DNA of 7,061 nt, from contig DAOVNL010000039.1 in the NCBI GenBank assembly GCA_030630245.1, positions 1 to 7,061 on the forward strand. The letters are read 5' to 3'. Source of the DNA: Candidatus Omnitrophota bacterium (GTDB lineage Bacteria; Omnitrophota; Gorgyraeia; B26-G9). The notes below the pieces were generated by a model. That model had not been told where the DNA came from. It made no database searches and saw only the letters and a program-made list of their open reading frames with translations. Of the stretch, positions 164-7,061 are shown in pieces; the first letter of the stretch is position 1; every line of letters starts with the position of its first letter. Position numbers and translations under genes: made by a program.

Positions 164-619
164 TTATTTGCGGAAACTCCCTAGTTTCCTCAAACGCTGC
201 TCAATTTCTTTCTTGGCGATTTTCTCCCGCTGGTCATACAATTTTCGGCCCCGCGCAAGCCCAAGCTCAACCTTTGCCTTGCCCTTTGAGTTAAAATGTA
301 AATTCAAAGCGATCAGGGAATAACCCTTTTGCTTTATTTTACCGATCAGCTTGGTTATCTCCCTTTTATTTAAAAGGAGCTTCCTGACGCGCATTGGGTC
401 AACATTAGCATAACTCCCTTTATCATAAGGGCTTATATGTAAATTGTGCAGAAATACTTCCTCATTCTGTATTCGGGCGAAGCTGTCCTTTAAATCTACC
501 TTGTTTGATCTAAGGGATTTAACCTCTGTCCCCTTCAACTCGATGCCTGCCTCTATTCTTTCAAGAATTTCATATCTGTGTGCCGCCCTTTTATTGGAGG
601 CAATTCTCTTGTTCTCCAT
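164..619 (-). CDS. smpB: SsrA-binding protein SmpB
   Basis: SmpB is the small basic RNA-binding protein that carries tmRNA into the empty A site of stalled ribosomes for trans-translation. The 151 residues are normal for the family and the protein is complete. Visible signatures are the N-terminal NKRAAHRY (9-16), the core EAGIELKGTEVKSLR (23-37), DPMRVRKLLL (74-83), and the C-terminal GLARGRKLYDQRE (120-132), which leads into a basic helical tail (133-151). This tail normally sits in the mRNA channel. The ATG at 619 is the only start that keeps the conserved NKRA.H.Y segment. It lies only 8 bases after a TATAAT box with no Shine-Dalgarno between, so the mRNA is probably leaderless. ssrA follows on the same strand after a gap of about 97 bp. 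Confidence 0.98.
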   Translation of the reverse strand: MENKRIASNKRAAHRYEILERIEAGIELKGTEVKSLRSNKVDLKDSFARIQNEEVFLHNLHISPYDKGSYANVDPMRVRKLLLNKREITKLIGKIKQKGYSLIALNLHFNSKGKAKVELGLARGRKLYDQREKIAKKEIEQRLRKLGSFRK

Positions 620-719: not shown

Positions 720-1151
720 TTAGTGTTTTTTCTCAGGGCGAGGCTCATTGCATTCTTTGCAGAAAAGATATACCAACTCATTAATTGTCTTGCATTTAGG
801 ACAACGCCAGCTGCTTGAATTTTTAAGGTACTTCATTTCATTGACCTTATCATTGGCTTTTCTTAAGCCAAGGACTCCCAGGAAAACCAGCCATACAATA
901 ATTGTCACATACACCGGATGAAAAAAAGGCCAAAAGAAAAAAATTATCCAGACACATACCGGTATAATTGTTACAATTAACATCTTTCCAAAACGCTTTT
1001 CCCAGGTCTCGCTTAAGCCGCCAAACGCCAACGCGACAGTCAGCACAAAAAAAATACAGCTTAAGATAAGCGAAATCTGAAACAGCGGATGCGATAAGGT
1101 AAAGTTTATTATCTGCGAAGCAGACATCTTAGATATAATTTCCCTTCTCAT
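720..1151 (-). CDS. Small membrane protein with C-terminal RanBP2-type zinc finger
   Basis: The function is unknown. The 143-residue protein has three hydrophobic segments likely to cross the membrane (about 24-44, 57-76 and 79-95). A short charged linker leads to a C-terminal zinc-binding module, probably cytosolic. That module reads W115-x-C117-x2-C120-x3-N124-x6-C131-x2-C134, exactly the RanBP2-type zinc finger pattern including the Trp and Asn. In eukaryotes this module binds ubiquitin or single-stranded RNA. In bacteria it is usually just called a zinc ribbon on a membrane protein, so function cannot be transferred. The ATG at 1151 lies 5 bases after the GH116 stop, suggesting translational coupling. 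Neither this ATG nor the second one (Met9, at 1127) has an ideal Shine-Dalgarno; Met9 has AGAAGGGA about 13 bases upstream and could be the true start. Confidence 0.78.
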   Translation of the reverse strand: MRREIISKMSASQIINFTLSHPLFQISLILSCIFFVLTVALAFGGLSETWEKRFGKMLIVTIIPVCVWIIFFFWPFFHPVYVTIIVWLVFLGVLGLRKANDKVNEMKYLKNSSSWRCPKCKTINELVYLFCKECNEPRPEKKH

Positions 1152-1156
1152 TAAAA

Positions 1157-3316
1157 CTAAACGTAAGATTCCCGGGCCAATTCCCTTATTTTTTCCAGTC
1201 CCTTTTCAACACGCTCGTTTTGTTTCCCCAAGGCCGGTAAAACAGCCCAGATAACGGAATTTCTCATATAGTAATCGCCGAATCCGAAACTGCCGTCTTT
1301 AGTAAGGATCACATCCGGCTGATTCCAGGGATTTTTATTCTTCTGCGTTAACGTATTCCAGACCTTTTTAGTTAAATTAAGGCCTTCTTTGACAAAGCCC
1401 TCATATATTGCCAATGCCGCGAATGAATAGCAAACTCCCGGCCAGATATTCTGTGAGTGGTATGACTCCTCATCCCGCGTTTTATTTAAAAATACGGAAT
1501 TCGTCGCACCGTACGCTGAATCCTTATCATTTAGCTTGAAAATCCATTTTATCGCGCTCTTTACTTTTTCATCCGGGAATATCCTTCCCAGTCCCAGTAA
1601 ATACGCGTACCACTGCCCGGCAAGCTGAGCAATCATGCACGATTCATAGTCCCTTTTTTCGTCTTTTGCCGTTATATAAAATTTCCCGTTCCAGAGTTTG
1701 CTTTCAAAACTTCTCCTTCCCCTGTCAAATCTTTCCATACATCTAACCGCGAGCCTGTTATCATTTAAAATTTCCGCGATCTTTTTCATGGCCAGAAGGC
1801 TGACAAGAAAAACTCCCGCATTGTAAGCGCTTGTTCCCTTAAATCCCCAGGTATCGAATGTCGTATCAAAGCCTTCATTTTCAGGCAATCCATCACCGTC
1901 ATTATCAAGCTTCAAACTATATTCAAAAGCTTTTTTTAAGGCCGGATACATTTCCTTTAAAAATTTCATATCACCGCTGTTTAAATAAGCATTGTAGCTT
2001 TGCAGAATAAGCTTTGAATTAAGGTCTTTCCAAAGCGTCATTGTAGTTCCGTTGGAAGGCAGATCAATCCGCTCATAGCCGATATCATGAGGCACATATC
2101 CCGATTTGCGAATGCTTTTCTTAAACAGCAGCAATGCCTTTATATTTAATCCCGGGAAAAGCAACGCGATAGGCACAGAAGCGTAGAAATATACGTCAAG
2201 TGTTCCCATCAAAGGGCATATAATAGGCGCCTCATACATTGTAAAATCACCATTGCGCGTAAGCCAGCTGGATGAAAAAAGAGTGTATAAATTATTCATA
2301 AGCGCATCGCAAAGCCAGCCCTCAAGTCCCATTCCATCAATTATCGCGGGAAGGCGTGACGTCCTTTTCCGCAGGTCATCTTTGTTTTTATTTACATACA
2401 ACCCGACTTCGCGGCTCTTTTTAAAACCTTTCTCATAAAAATGCCCCAAAAAATGTTTTGGGAAATACCAGCTATGGACAAAAGGTACTTTTTTATACTG
2501 CTTGGCATTGAGCTTAAATGTAACCGCTAATGCCCCTCCGAGTTCTATGCTTTGACTTTCACTTGGATGTTTCATCTGTATATTGGGAAGCCTTCCCGTG
2601 TCACTGAAATATTCAAACGCGTCAAGGCCAATGTTAGGTTCAAAACAAAAATTTTCTCTTTGCATATTCCACGCGCTCAAGTAACTTACTTTCCCGATGC
2701 CTTCAGGCACACCGATAAAAGTATTTCCAGCAGCAATATCATTCGGCAGCGGATTTTTATGTAAAAATTCAATGCCTATCATATTGTGATCTTTTTTCAA
2801 AAGGTTATATCGGCCGACAGAATTCTTACTAACAAGATTCCTGGCAATAAACATAAGCCCGACCTCGATATCCTTGTTTATCTTGTTTTTCACTTCAAAC
2901 TCAAACAAGGCCGCGGGCAGGCTTGAATTCTTCACATCGCCCGGGATTAGAAATGACCGCGCGTTTAAAGAAATTTCAACCGGCAGGTTATCATCACTGT
3001 AAACAAGGCGCGCATTTGGGAATTTACCGTCAAAATCAATGCTTTTAATAGTATTATAATTCGCGATTTTCTCAGTCTGAAGCAGCTTGCATATAGCAGC
3101 AGCCTTAGTATTAACATAAAGGGCAAAATGAAATCCGGCTACACCTAAGGCTTTTCCTTTTTCTTTGTTTTTCTGGTTTTCAATCGGCCTTGTCCAGTTA
3201 TTCAGGTATGTGATGTAATCAATTGTACCTGATGGAGTAATCTCCAGCTTCCCCGCGCCTATACCGCCTAAAGGCATTCCAGATTTGACTTTTTGTTTTG
3301 AATTATAAACAGGCAT
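1157..3316 (-). CDS. GH116 family glycosidase (beta-glucosidase/beta-xylosidase-like, GBA2 relative)
   Basis: This is a retaining glycoside hydrolase expected to cleave beta-linked glucose or related sugars; substrate cannot be set from sequence. The start is the ATG at 3316, 7 bases after a clear AAGGA; an in-frame TTG at 3340 would add 8 residues but has no such site. The product has 719 residues, slightly short of the roughly 800 of characterised bacterial members. In the numbering from the TTG, the N-terminal beta-sandwich domain (about 20-300) opens with the family signature MPLGGIGAGKLEI (22-34). The alpha/alpha-barrel domain (about 335-705) holds predicted nucleophile E370 (in FTMYEAP), GTLDVYFYAS (379-388), VPHDIG (416-421) with likely sugar-contacting H418, WKDLNSK (437-443), acid/base D496 (in TTFDTWGFKGTSAYNAG), and YMRNSVIWA near the C-terminus with R693 at a probable sugar-binding Arg. 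There is no signal peptide, so it is probably cytosolic and acts on imported oligosaccharides or a glucolipid. It is probably co-transcribed with the zinc-finger gene. Confidence 0.93.
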   Translation of the reverse strand: MPVYNSKQKVKSGMPLGGIGAGKLEITPSGTIDYITYLNNWTRPIENQKNKEKGKALGVAGFHFALYVNTKAAAICKLLQTEKIANYNTIKSIDFDGKFPNARLVYSDDNLPVEISLNARSFLIPGDVKNSSLPAALFEFEVKNKINKDIEVGLMFIARNLVSKNSVGRYNLLKKDHNMIGIEFLHKNPLPNDIAAGNTFIGVPEGIGKVSYLSAWNMQRENFCFEPNIGLDAFEYFSDTGRLPNIQMKHPSESQSIELGGALAVTFKLNAKQYKKVPFVHSWYFPKHFLGHFYEKGFKKSREVGLYVNKNKDDLRKRTSRLPAIIDGMGLEGWLCDALMNNLYTLFSSSWLTRNGDFTMYEAPIICPLMGTLDVYFYASVPIALLFPGLNIKALLLFKKSIRKSGYVPHDIGYERIDLPSNGTTMTLWKDLNSKLILQSYNAYLNSGDMKFLKEMYPALKKAFEYSLKLDNDGDGLPENEGFDTTFDTWGFKGTSAYNAGVFLVSLLAMKKIAEILNDNRLAVRCMERFDRGRRSFESKLWNGKFYITAKDEKRDYESCMIAQLAGQWYAYLLGLGRIFPDEKVKSAIKWIFKLNDKDSAYGATNSVFLNKTRDEESYHSQNIWPGVCYSFAALAIYEGFVKEGLNLTKKVWNTLTQKNKNPWNQPDVILTKDGSFGFGDYYMRNSVIWAVLPALGKQNERVEKGLEKIRELARESYV

Positions 3317-3323
3317 CGCGCTA

Positions 3324-3328
3324 TCCTT
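3324..3328 (-). promoter_or_regulatory. Ribosome binding site deciding the GH116 start
   Basis: On the minus strand AAGGA (within AAAGGAT) lies 7 bases before the ATG at 3316. This favours that ATG over the in-frame TTG at 3340, which has no purine-rich site in the proper position. Confidence 0.8.
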
Positions 3329-3349
3329 TATTAAAAACAACTTATTAGG

Positions 3350-3466: not shown

Positions 3467-6103
3467 TTAAATTGATTGCCCAATAAAATCTGTCTGCTTG
3501 CCTTCTAATTTCTCAAACATAACACTAAATTTAGTTATTCCCTCTTCCGCCCGTTTTTTACTTATACGCAAACCATGATTTATTTTTGCTTTTTCCTTCC
3601 AGGCAATTAATTTAAAAAAGTATGTCCCGTCATTAGCATGCCGCACAATAACTTTTTGTCTTTGCAATCCGCTCTTAAAATAGAAATGCCCGAGCAGGTT
3701 CGCGTGAGGATCGTAGTTAAGTAATTCGCCATTTTCATCTGTCCCGTATTTTTTATATAAATTATCAAGGTATACCCGCGAACCTTCTTCTACAACAACC
3801 TGTGTAGTTCTAAAACCCTCCGGTATCAAATCAATAACAGCACGCAAAAATTCTGTTGCTAAACCACTATTCCTTTCTTGTTTTTGTTTTTCCATTTCAA
3901 TATCATTAATAAAAAGTTCTCTCCCTTTATCCTGCAGATAAAAAATTCCGTATCCGACAAATTCTCCATCTTTCATTCGAATTATATCAGCGCGTCCTGT
4001 TTGCGGACTATATTCGATTTCATATTCTGCCCCAAATTTATTTTTAATCACCACTCCATCCAAAACTTTAAAAATTGCCTCATCTAATTCTATATCAGTT
4101 ACTTTTTCATCCTTTTCAAAGTTTGTTCTTGATTCTATTTCGATAGCCCTTAAAACAACGTATCCTTTGCGAAAGTTCTCCCTGAACCCTTTTTTAGCTT
4201 TGGCGATAAATTCATAATCCGCATCTAATTCCAGCAACTGCAGCCAGCCTTGCGCCATATTAATGCTATAAGCAAAAATCTGGGTTAGATCATACTCTCC
4301 CATAGTCGGCTGTTCTACAAACTCTGTCCAAGTATGTACCTTTTCTGCTTTTTCATTTGCCGGCATATTATTAAAATCTTCTAAAATTTCCTTGCCTTCT
4401 GCCTCAACTTGGATTTCTCTCATGGCTTCAACTTCCCCGATAACCTCTTTAATGATTTTATCTTCCCTGTTAAGAATTTTTTTTATACTCGGATAAAATG
4501 GATTACCAAAAGCTTTATTTTTCTCGAACTTGAAAAATATCTGTATTAAATCATTGCTCAAAAGCCTTTCTTTGATATTACTCTGGGAATTATCTAATAA
4601 TTCATCGGCTGTTTTAGCGCGAAAATCTACAAATCGAAATTTTCTATGCTTGGCCACATCTTTCATAAGCCAAGACCCTGTGCCATCAAAATTCGGCTCA
4701 GGTTTATGCTCAAGATCAATCACCATGGTTCCTGAACTAACAGGCACAAAACCCAGTTTTATATATAATGACTTTGCTCTGTGATCTATCACATTGTACA
4801 CTGTAATTTTCTTCATACCGGCTTCTTCTGCCAGAGATATAGCCAGCGAAAGCATTGCCGAGGCCAAGCCGTTGTTACGGTGATAATACGTTTTTATAAT
4901 AGTATCATTATTTAAAGACAAGCCGGCTTCCTTTTGTTTCACATCAATAGCAAACTGGCAATAGCCGTTTTTGTCTTCTTTTCCGAAATCGCCTAAAAAC
5001 GGATTGATCTCCATGAGGTTTATCATTCTAAAGGTAACTCCTCTGCCCCGACCATAATGTAATGTTTCTCGTAAAGCAAAAGCATGTTCGCCTCCTTTAG
5101 TAACCAGCAGTGTCTTTAATTGCCCGTGCTTATTTTCAAACGGCAGTTTAAATTCCGGAGAGAGTTTTTCCGCATAATTAAAACCTATCTTATTTAGGAT
5201 TTCTTTTAAATCACCCGCAGCAATAATTTTTCCCTGAAACTCCTTTTGTATAACATTTTTCCGCGGATTTAATTTTAAAGCGCCTGCGGATATATCATCC
5301 AGAGAATATTCATGTACTTCAGTGATCTGATATTGTGTCTTTTCTTCAGAACTCCCGGCATATGTAATTCGTAAAACTTGGTTTGCCGGATGGATAAAAA
5401 TACCCGCGGTATCATTTTTAGCAGTTCTTGGAGCAGGATCCAAATATATATTTTCTAACTCCAGCCCTTTTTCAAATAAAAAATCCCTGATTTGCTTAGC
5501 CAATACAGTATCCGGAGAACGTGATACTATAATAGCCTTTGTCCGGGCTGAAAAAAGATTCGCTTCATCAAAAGCAGGAATAATATTCCCCAACTCATCA
5601 GTACCCGCATAGGCAGCCCATTCAGAAGTAACATTTTCCAAATCAGCCTTCTTCAGCGGATCAATATTTAAATGCGCAAGTGAAATATCCCCTTTCTTAT
5701 CAATAAATACAATACAGGTACAGGATTGAAAAATATCTTGAAAAGGACTTTTAAGCTGCCAATACCCGGAATTTAATCCCTGGACAAAATCAGCATTACT
5801 TATATTATAGAAATCACTTTTCGAATACTTTCGTGTTAATAATTCAGTTTTATCTATTTCCCTGAACGGAAGAACGCCTTGAGAAAAAACACCCCGCTCA
5901 CTTGTTAGAGAAAATACTTTTTTGAAATTATCAAAATGTAAATTTAATCCAGGAGACAAAGTATCTATTTCTGTTTTGCGCGCTCCGGGATTCAGAATAT
6001 CTGTCCCTGCCCAGGCAAACTGGCTAATCAGTATTGCCCGCAGCAGCATTAAGGCTACTACTTTAAATATTAAGCTGTGTTTTAATCTTTTCCGATTCAG
6101 CAT
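3467..6103 (-). CDS. Large exported protein with CheD-like region and two GNAT acetyltransferase domains
   Basis: The gene is not recognised as any named gene. The 878 residues begin with a signal peptide: basic MLNRKRLK, a hydrophobic stretch (11-28), and cleavage probably after A30-W-A32. A low-complexity linker with DTLSP (47-51) follows. Residues about 100-250 resemble the CheD deamidase fold: SC128-T-C130 followed by an Asp-containing turn and LAH144, then a helix and strands (IRDFLFEKG, AGIFIHPA, QVLRITY). GNAT domain 1 (about 327-465) has the acetyl-CoA motif R409-x-x-G412-x-A414 and the closing RAKSLYIKLGFVPV (442-455). Residues 466-665 are helical, charged and unrecognised. GNAT domain 2 (about 670-820) has R744-x-x-G747-x-A749. 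GNAT enzymes move an acyl group from acyl-CoA to an amine; the substrate is unknown. The ATG at 6103 has only a weak purine-rich site (AAGAC), but it is the only start that gives a full signal peptide. An export signal on CoA-dependent domains is odd. Confidence 0.88.
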   Translation of the reverse strand: MLNRKRLKHSLIFKVVALMLLRAILISQFAWAGTDILNPGARKTEIDTLSPGLNLHFDNFKKVFSLTSERGVFSQGVLPFREIDKTELLTRKYSKSDFYNISNADFVQGLNSGYWQLKSPFQDIFQSCTCIVFIDKKGDISLAHLNIDPLKKADLENVTSEWAAYAGTDELGNIIPAFDEANLFSARTKAIIVSRSPDTVLAKQIRDFLFEKGLELENIYLDPAPRTAKNDTAGIFIHPANQVLRITYAGSSEEKTQYQITEVHEYSLDDISAGALKLNPRKNVIQKEFQGKIIAAGDLKEILNKIGFNYAEKLSPEFKLPFENKHGQLKTLLVTKGGEHAFALRETLHYGRGRGVTFRMINLMEINPFLGDFGKEDKNGYCQFAIDVKQKEAGLSLNNDTIIKTYYHRNNGLASAMLSLAISLAEEAGMKKITVYNVIDHRAKSLYIKLGFVPVSSGTMVIDLEHKPEPNFDGTGSWLMKDVAKHRKFRFVDFRAKTADELLDNSQSNIKERLLSNDLIQIFFKFEKNKAFGNPFYPSIKKILNREDKIIKEVIGEVEAMREIQVEAEGKEILEDFNNMPANEKAEKVHTWTEFVEQPTMGEYDLTQIFAYSINMAQGWLQLLELDADYEFIAKAKKGFRENFRKGYVVLRAIEIESRTNFEKDEKVTDIELDEAIFKVLDGVVIKNKFGAEYEIEYSPQTGRADIIRMKDGEFVGYGIFYLQDKGRELFINDIEMEKQKQERNSGLATEFLRAVIDLIPEGFRTTQVVVEEGSRVYLDNLYKKYGTDENGELLNYDPHANLLGHFYFKSGLQRQKVIVRHANDGTYFFKLIAWKEKAKINHGLRISKKRAEEGITKFSVMFEKLEGKQTDFIGQSI

Positions 6104-6204: not shown

Positions 6205-7061
6205 TTATATGGATTGCATCAGTATTGGATTCAAAAACAGAGAAATGGTTTTCATTTTTTTCGAAAAAAGCTGATAAAAAACACTTATAGCAGAAGGAAA
6301 TTCCGCAGGTATCTCTGACATCCAAACCCTCACATCACCATAGCAAAAAATTTCATGCCTATGCACGGGATATTCCGGGTAAGCATCTTTGAAATATTTT
6401 CTAAATAATTGAACCATTGAATTTCTTGAAAAATCACCTATAATTATTCCGCCTTGAAAATTTTGACAAATAAATTCAAAAAATTTTAAAATATATAAAT
6501 AAGTTGTGCTCTTACCCCTAAGCTTTTCATAACGTCCAGCATGCTCATAACTAATATAGAATCTTCTATTTCTAACTTCAACACGAAAAGAAAACAGAAA
6601 TAAGATACTTTTTACTCCTTTTTCTACTTCAGTACCTATAAGTTTTAATTCAACAACTTCCTTAATATCCTTCTTTTTAAAGACTGATATCTTATAAAGA
6701 TGCCCCATTTTCCCGGGAACATGCCTATTAATCTGCTTTTTCAACAACACAAGATAAATATAATCTTCTTCCCCAATTTTTTTAAATCTATCAGAAACCA
6801 TTAATTTATTAAGATTATTTTCTTTTTGTTTGAATCCTGGGATATCCCCTTCAGTAGATTCCAGAAAAAAGCAGCTTAATTCTTTACCGGAGTTAAAGTT
6901 TCGTTGAATATTATCTGCTAAACTTCCTAAATTTTTCGGACTAAACAAAAAATCGTGTTTTTTAAAAATTTTCTCCGCTTTTTCCAGCATTTCCACAGCT
7001 TCTAAATCTTCTTTAGAGCTAATATCAACAGGCCCTTCCGCCTCATTAATCCTTGATATCG
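6205..7061 (-). CDS. Hypothetical protein, C-terminal part, GNAT-like order (5' end outside window)
   Basis: The function is not recognised. An in-frame GTG exists at 6996, but the frame has no stop up to the window edge: 21 more sensible codons precede it (ending ISSKEDLEA). I therefore read this as the last 284 residues of a longer protein. Counting from the GTG, a helix (1-14) and a mixed, Lys-rich region (20-110) lead into strand ILFLFSFRVEV (131-141), strand RRFYISYEHA (144-153), a basic turn LRGKSTT (159-165) with a hydrophobic helix (166-179), strand GGIIIGDFS (182-190), helix NSMVQLFRKYF (192-202), and a final strand near HEIFCYGDVRVW (214-225). This is the order of the GNAT core from beta-4 to the end. 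The RGKSTT turn only loosely resembles the R/Q-x-x-G-x-G/A loop. The TAA stop is at 6205-6207. AT content is high, and the last 25 residues are hydrophobic and basic. It could be a relative of the adjacent GNAT protein. Confidence 0.72.
   Translation of the reverse strand, partial: ISRINEAEGPVDISSKEDLEAVEMLEKAEKIFKKHDFLFSPKNLGSLADNIQRNFNSGKELSCFFLESTEGDIPGFKQKENNLNKLMVSDRFKKIGEEDYIYLVLLKKQINRHVPGKMGHLYKISVFKKKDIKEVVELKLIGTEVEKGVKSILFLFSFRVEVRNRRFYISYEHAGRYEKLRGKSTTYLYILKFFEFICQNFQGGIIIGDFSRNSMVQLFRKYFKDAYPEYPVHRHEIFCYGDVRVWMSEIPAEFPSAISVFYQLFSKKMKTISLFLNPILMQSI

What the first reader, a model, noticed from the sequence alone, without database searches (positions are those of the whole stretch)
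3467..6103. Exported fusion of a CheD-like region with two GNAT domains
The sequence shows an N-terminal export signal with an AWA cleavage site and two separate R-x-x-G-x-A acetyl-CoA loops (R409/G412/A414 and R744/G747/A749), the first followed by a canonical LYIKLGF. CoA is cytosolic, so exported GNAT domains are unusual. Either the signal is an uncleaved anchor facing the cytosol, the domains are degenerate binders, or the protein acts in a target cell where acyl-CoA exists. The combination of domains is one I cannot name. An effector role is speculation.
Basis: partly seen in the sequence, partly recalled or inferred. Interest (0 to 1): 0.75.

Follow-up and report, generated by a model that had tools for sequence, protein, structure and literature searches.

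The report
Two-ended export tag on intracellular-type enzymes
The gene belongs to a large class in an uncultured bacterial lineage (Omnitrophota) in which otherwise unrelated, often enzyme-like proteins begin with the same signal-peptide-like leader and end in the same six-residue tail, so the two ends are likely a new sorting signal that would send enzymes out of the cell, possibly into a neighbouring cell.

Summary
The 878-aa ORF is real: a signal-peptide-like leader (AWA|G), one solid GNAT domain (PF00583, E 8e-8) and a weak second one; the CheD reading failed a profile test. The larger finding is at its ends. The leader (signal peptide plus 'TLSPxxxI') and the last six residues (FIGQSI) recur on unrelated proteins throughout its Omnitrophota family. 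Of 94 leader-bearing ORFs read to their stop, 89 end in [AS][IV] (66 of 71 without the rows that built the leader model; 75 of 80 unrelated tail clusters), against 10 of 325 non-leader ORFs; consensus [LF][IV]EQ[AS]I-COOH, with little information before residue -6. These proteins are cysteine-poor (0.52% against 1.32%), often adjacent, and carry kinase, phosphatase, PGK, radical-SAM, methyltransferase, GGDEF and other domains that need cytosolic cofactors. Sister families carry a related leader, often on giant ORFs, and many end in [AS]A instead. Best reading: a Sec leader plus a free-carboxyl C-terminal peptide form a two-ended sorting signature. The co-occurrence is shown, export and sorting are inferred, delivery into another cell is speculative. 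No reader of the tail was found (S41 and PDZ_6 counts are not raised).

The parts
3467..6103 (-). ORF P0001, 878 aa, exported-type mosaic protein with both end signatures
6008..6103 (-). signal-peptide-like leader, residues 1-32, ending AWA|G
   Evidence: leader profile match 5912-6088, E 2.4e-21
5912..5965 (-). post-signal motif DTLSPGLNLHFDNFKKVF, residues 47-64
   Evidence: alignment A3
   Evidence: CheD not supported
4640..5146 (-). first GNAT domain with its extended N-terminal part, residues 320-488 (Pfam core 408-452)
3797..4003 (-). weak second GNAT match, residues 701-769, below the Pfam cut-off
3470..3487 (-). C-terminal tail FIGQSI, residues 873-878
6205..7059 (-). neighbouring ORF, start outside the contig, last 284 aa, also ends in QSI (ILMQSI): probably a second member of the class
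   Evidence: leader not visible because the contig ends

Best explanation
P0001 is one of a lineage-wide class of Omnitrophota proteins that share a signal-peptide-like leader with a TLSP motif at the start and a six-residue tail, [LF][IV]EQ[AS]I, at the very end, and these two ends likely form a two-part sorting signal that would carry otherwise intracellular-type enzymes out of the cytoplasm. Shown: both ends occur together on unrelated proteins; the tail's conservation begins abruptly at residue -6; the class is cysteine-poor; its recognisable domains are mostly enzymes or signalling domains of the cytosolic kind. Inferred: the Sec machinery moves the protein across the inner membrane and signal peptidase cuts after AWA. 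Inferred: the TLSP segment and the free C-terminal carboxylate are then read by a second, unidentified factor that passes the protein to the surface or beyond. Inferred and weakest: the final place holds ATP, SAM and CoA, most likely the cytoplasm of another (prey or host) cell, where the GNAT of P0001 would acylate a target.
For: 89 of 94 leader ORFs end in [AS][IV], 66 of 71 held out; 75 of 80 unrelated tail clusters against 10 of 325 non-leader ORFs; logo limited to the last six residues; held-out named genome 24 of 27 leader ORFs against 0 of 9 others; family table 58/8/8/326; cysteine 0.52% against 1.32%, p 4e-14; P0001 keeps QSI although its C-terminal third differs from its homologues; 33 of 66 scanned tagged proteins have Pfam matches, largely cofactor-dependent enzymes, 17 of 23 motif checks positive. 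Lifestyle support from another Omnitrophota organism: PMC13153191 passages, PMC10066038 passages.
Against: No tail reader or secretion machine was found: S41 is single-copy in 30 of 32 genomes in and outside the family and PDZ_6 counts are alike. No signal-peptide program was run; the cleavage-site count (112 of 114) uses a permissive pattern, and strict A-x-A is present in 52 of 114. P0001's own h-region holds K14 and R22. Cysteine depletion may partly reflect domain choice. Cofactor-dependent enzymes outside the cytosol are themselves an argument against simple export. Outside the family the tail differs, and 2 of 12 non-leader ORFs there also end in AA.
Confidence: 0.6

Rival explanations
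1. The C-terminal peptide is a degradation or quality-control tag: like SsrA-type tails it would let a protease (CtpA/Prc or Clp) remove proteins that fail to be exported.
For: Sister-family tails often end in AA, like SsrA tails (recalled). One S41 protease with a PDZ domain is present in nearly all genomes. The tail is very short with a free carboxylate.
Against: A conserved degron on most members of a large exported class would be costly; three family tmRNA tags read by ARAGORN do not end in QAI (a tag was found in only 8 of 15 loci).
Confidence: 0.12
2. The proteins are exported but stay in the cell's own envelope, where the tail anchors or assembles them and where they work on local or scavenged cofactors, or bind ligands without catalysis.
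For: Signal-peptide-like leader and cysteine depletion need nothing more than export. Half of the scanned members have no recognisable enzyme domain (33 of 66).
Against: Radical-SAM, GGDEF, kinase and methyltransferase motifs are intact in members checked, which is hard to explain where ATP and SAM are missing.
Confidence: 0.25
3. The shared ends are relics of gene duplication and domain shuffling, not signals.
For: Leader genes lie next to one another (27 adjacent same-strand pairs) and domains are shuffled.
Against: 80 of the tail clusters have no detectable similarity before the last residues, and 75 of them still keep the tail; conservation begins abruptly at -6.
Confidence: 0.05
4. The leader is an uncleaved anchor and the enzyme part stays in the cytosol at the membrane.
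Against: A basic n-region places the following part outside (general rule, recalled); cysteine depletion; small residues at the expected cleavage site.
Confidence: 0.1

Closest known systems
PEP-CTERM/EpsH (exosortase) sorting, PMC1569441 (abstract and outline seen)
   Same: Unrelated proteins of low homology, generally with an N-terminal signal peptide, that share a short C-terminal signal, several per genome.
   Different: PEP-CTERM has a PEP motif, a transmembrane helix and a basic cluster. Here there are six residues at the extreme C-terminus, and no helix or basic cluster is seen in the tails listed.
Type IX secretion with C-terminal domain (PMC4804311 and PMC11285876, listings only)
   Same: Signal peptide plus a C-terminal signal for a second transport step.
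   Different: The T9SS signal is a folded beta-sandwich domain; here no conservation is seen before residue -6.
Free-carboxyl C-terminal ligands: peroxisomal PTS1, PDZ ligands, SsrA tails (recalled)
   Same: A few residues with a free carboxylate that route unrelated proteins.
   Different: Other residues; PTS1 is eukaryotic; none is known to me as a partner of a bacterial Sec leader.
Giant proteins of Omnitrophota, PMC10066038 and PMC12057145 (passages)
   Same: Long mosaic ORFs; a related leader heads many of them.
   Different: Those papers' passages discuss size, adhesion and carbohydrate domains. The text of PMC10066038 contains neither 'signal peptide' nor 'C-terminal'.

Membership tests
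GNAT acetyltransferases (first domain) | profile match above the curated cut-off with the acetyl-CoA loop | tested here: met
   PF00583 33.0 bits against 20.7; R409-x-x-G412-x-A414; P0003 lacks the arginine
GNAT acetyltransferases (second domain) | profile match above the curated cut-off | tested here: inconclusive
   PF13302 19.4 bits against 25.4
CheD | profile similarity to CheD | tested here: not met
   no Pfam match; hhalign 0.5% with shallow alignments
PEP-CTERM proteins | PEP motif, transmembrane helix and basic tail at the C-terminus | tested here: not met
   66 C-termini listed show none; no NCBIfam sorting model in 10 proteins
Type IX secretion cargo | conserved folded C-terminal domain | tested here: not met
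   80 unrelated tail clusters among 94 proteins
Two-ended Omnitrophota signature (proposed here) | leader: signal peptide plus TLSP-type motif | tested here: met
   E 2.4e-21; P0001 is itself a row of the profile
Two-ended Omnitrophota signature (proposed here) | C-terminal [AS][IV] with the [LF][IV]EQ[AS]I pattern | tested here: met
   FIGQSI fits five of six positions
Two-ended Omnitrophota signature (proposed here) | cleavage, export and a dedicated reader in the cell | not testable with these tools
   needs proteomics or binding tests

The most novel reading that the evidence does not exclude
Omnitrophota run an undescribed protein-delivery route: a Sec leader with a TLSP/TLA post-signal motif and a free-carboxyl C-terminal hexapeptide mark a second proteome of kinases, phosphatases, methyltransferases, acetyltransferases and central-metabolism enzymes that leaves the cytoplasm and works inside prey or host cells; the tail's last residue (I in this family, often A in sister families) has co-evolved with its reader, and the giant proteins of the phylum use the same route.
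Probability: 0.27. Interest if true: 0.95.

Novelty: new variant of a known kind. Interest (0 to 1): 0.82.

Why it matters
If the two ends are a sorting signal, the exported proteome of a large uncultured lineage can be read from sequence alone, and the giant proteins of the phylum gain a common entry point. It also makes a concrete question testable: why would a bacterium export phosphoglycerate kinase, radical-SAM, GGDEF and GNAT domains to a place that should lack their cofactors? The answer bears on how suspected Omnitrophota predators act on other cells. A six-residue tail without any domain would need a reader of a kind that I do not know from bacterial secretion.

Tried and rejected
CheD homology of residues 84-276: unsupported. 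Full-length structure: pLDDT 31.8, not used for a fold search. GNAT piece: pLDDT 44, weak support only. GNAT core against solved structures: two weak rows, E 0.09; full-protein profile: nothing. Search for stand-alone relatives of the GNAT piece: one fragment. S41 or PDZ_6 expansion as tail reader: not seen. tmRNA tag as source of QAI: not seen, but a tag was read in only 8 of 15 loci, three of them in the family. Sorting-signal models: none in NCBIfam for 10 tagged proteins; none in Pfam for 66. Leader outside Omnitrophota: not tested. Papers: the searches listed none that describes this leader or tail, judged from titles and starts of abstracts; bioRxiv is not held, so the giant-gene preprint cited in PMC12057145 was not seen.

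Selection to keep in mind. The leader model A3 (25 rows, P0001 among them) was built mostly from tagged ORFs; searches give the counts without its rows or largely so (G390, probably the same genome as G003, supplied one row). Stretches of G002, G006, G007 and G008 included contigs chosen for leader hits, and searches were aimed at leader places; the 40 G000 contigs (about 178 kb of 1,138,904 bases by my addition) were picked by number alone and held 76 complete ORFs of 150 aa or more and no leader. The 325 non-leader ORFs come from the family stretches, not from G390. Dropped before counts: ORFs open at an end or at the 3' end, shorter than 150 aa or 230 aa, and repeats with the same tail. In one search, 4 of the 8 leader-only ORFs end in [AS]V and are counted as tagged in later calls; 4 of the 8 tag-only ORFs have a weak leader. 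The 5 untagged of 94 are listed. An earlier table with a looser hydropathy rule gave 32 leader and tag, 38 leader only, 3 tag only, 229 neither; most of its leader-only rows are membrane or cytosolic proteins without an L[SA]P motif after the leader. Of the tagged proteins Pfam-scanned, 61 of 66 have the leader at E below 1e-3, 4 a weak one, and 1 begins outside its stretch; of the 63 further ones listed (P0001 included), 36 were scanned, P0001, and 26 not.

Full report
What was checked. The ORF at 3467-6103(-) is intact, 878 aa, on a 7061-base contig that is the whole window. Pfam supports one GNAT domain (PF00583, E 8.1e-8, residues 408-452) and only weakly a second one. The CheD-like region has no Pfam match, no PDB match of note and no profile similarity to the true CheD genes of sister genomes (hhalign 0.5%; an unrelated control gives 0.3%). 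Full-length structure prediction failed.

Where it comes from. The SmpB of the window is 91% identical to that of 'Candidatus Omnitrophota bacterium isolate bin S2.42', with a similar 143-aa ORF beside it in both. The organism is therefore Omnitrophota. The protein is rare: four relatives besides the window's own entry, two of them near full length at 68% identity (7985 candidates were scored). It has one copy in its own genome.

The turn in the case. All five proteins of the first alignment end in QSI, although P0006 shares mainly the GNAT core, and the ORF upstream of P0001 in the window also ends in QSI. A search of 12 family genomes with P0001 found residues from about 4 to 65 again at the start of many long ORFs that are otherwise different, and complete ORFs nearby ended in EQAI, QESI and the like. 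In sampled stretches the commonest C-terminal tripeptides were QAI (17) and QSI (11); the next ones occur 3 times.

Statistics. With a leader profile (A3), 400 complete family ORFs of at least 150 aa gave 58 with leader and [AS]I, 8 with leader only, 8 with the tag only and 326 with neither. In the named genome G390, with 34 leader places, 24 of 27 complete leader ORFs end in [AS][IV] and 0 of 9 others do. Pooled, 89 of 94 leader ORFs end in [AS][IV], 82 of them in [AS]I; without the rows used for the profile it is 66 of 71. The 94 tails fall into 80 clusters without detectable similarity, 75 of them with the tag, against 10 of 325 non-leader ORFs. The logo is [LF]-[IV]-E-Q-[AS]-I with 1.0, 2.0, 1.3, 2.7, 2.9 and 3.1 bits, and 0.45 bits or less at each of the eight positions before it. 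P0001 shows the point: its C-terminal third is unlike that of its homologues, yet the last three residues are the same.

Beyond the family. In 384 genomes of the phylum, 93 match the leader profile. All 11 family genomes in that draw match; the listed matches outside the family end by position 54 of 61, except one that reaches 59. A profile of ten outside leaders, with a 'TLAxxSxFQ' motif after the cleavage site, matches 29 of 30 chosen sister genomes, often on giant ORFs. Of 38 tails read to the stop, 29 end in A and 29 have A or S before the last residue. With 10 more, 26 of 48 end in [AS]A, and 11 of 22 clusters do; one cluster holds 23 of the 48. As control, 2 of 12 non-leader ORFs beside them also end in AA. 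The two tails from family f4 end in SAI and SSI. So a short C-terminal motif may be class-wide with a different last residue, but this is less certain than the result within the family.

Are they exported? Small residues stand at the expected cleavage site by a permissive pattern in 112 of 114 leaders, and strict A-x-A in 52 of 114. Cysteine after residue 60 is 0.52% in 66 leader proteins and 1.32% in 247 others (p 4e-14), as expected for proteins that leave a reducing cytosol, although domain choice may contribute. By a simple hydropathy count 42 of 66 have no further hydrophobic segment. No signal-peptide program was available.

What do they carry? Of 66 tagged proteins scanned, 33 have a Pfam match at 1e-4. 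Among the matches: protein kinase, LMW tyrosine phosphatase, phosphoglycerate kinase, PPDK parts, phosphoglucomutase, UDP-glucose pyrophosphorylase, glycogen debranching enzyme, NAD(P)H-hydrate dehydratase, cytidylyltransferase-like, APH, uridine-kinase-like, cytidine deaminase, radical SAM, FAD oxidoreductase, GGDEF, cNMP-binding, HATPase, HEAT repeats and many methyltransferases. One four-domain combination (CTP_transf, methyltransferase, Carb_kinase, APH) occurs in three genomes (L046, L160, L332). Simple patterns found the expected motif inside the domain in 17 of 23 checks; they missed PGM, PPDK, CYTH, one methyltransferase and two CTP_transf domains, and the kinase shows HYDIKPGN but DFD in place of DFG. 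The patterns themselves are recalled.

How it most likely works. Shown: two conserved ends on unrelated proteins. Inferred: Sec export, cleavage after AWA, and a second step that reads the TLSP segment and the C-terminal carboxylate. Speculative: the final place is another cell's cytoplasm, which would give ATP, SAM and CoA to these enzymes. In another Omnitrophota organism, Ca. Velamenicoccus archaeovorus, a paper reports the predator's intron RNA in dead archaeal cells and cites micrographs with open cytoplasmic contact (PMC13153191, passages). P0001 would then be an acyltransferase acting there. No reader was found: S41 is present once in 30 of 32 genomes, and PDZ_6 counts are 2-7 in the family and 2-6 in sister families.

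Known or new? The nearest known designs are PEP-CTERM/exosortase (abstract) and T9SS (listings). Both need a helix or a domain that is absent here. The Omnitrophota survey PMC10066038 contains neither 'signal peptide' nor 'C-terminal' in its main text. NCBIfam has no sorting model that matches ten tagged proteins. The paper searches named under Tried and rejected listed nothing on this signature; preprints are not held. I file it as a new variant of paired N- and C-terminal sorting signals; the bolder reading stands in the section on the most novel reading.

Noticed in passing
G113:C6 (L286), G084:C1:1156745, G062:C5 (L284): Open frames of 57,099, 45,379 and 18,962 aa in sister families; the first and third hold copies of the module at residues 84-276 of P0001, the second begins with the class-wide leader.
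   Followed up: partly
L046:6962-11680, L160:531-4583, L332:390-5189: The same combination of cytidylyltransferase-like, methyltransferase, NAD(P)H-hydrate dehydratase and APH domains in one tagged exported-type protein in three genomes, with the order changed in L332.
   Followed up: no
L342:1265-3085: A radical-SAM domain with an intact CxxxCxxC motif in an exported-type tagged protein, next to a tagged methyltransferase.
   Followed up: no
L161:190-3324, L334:65-3373, L099:11141-15802: GGDEF domains with an intact RGGDEF motif in three exported-type tagged proteins.
   Followed up: no
L341:160-1968: A tagged protein with HD and cytidine-deaminase domains; the deaminase part also weakly matches the MafB19 deaminase model.
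   Followed up: no
window 1157-3340 (-): GH116-type glycoside hydrolase (PF04685, E 1.9e-80) without the leader and without the tail.
   Followed up: no
L070:5488-6627 (-), own genome: An ORF whose start lies outside its contig and which ends in DQAI: a possible further member.
   Followed up: no
window 164-619 and 720-1151 (-): SmpB and a small membrane/zinc-ribbon-like ORF side by side, also in the named relative L141.
   Followed up: partly
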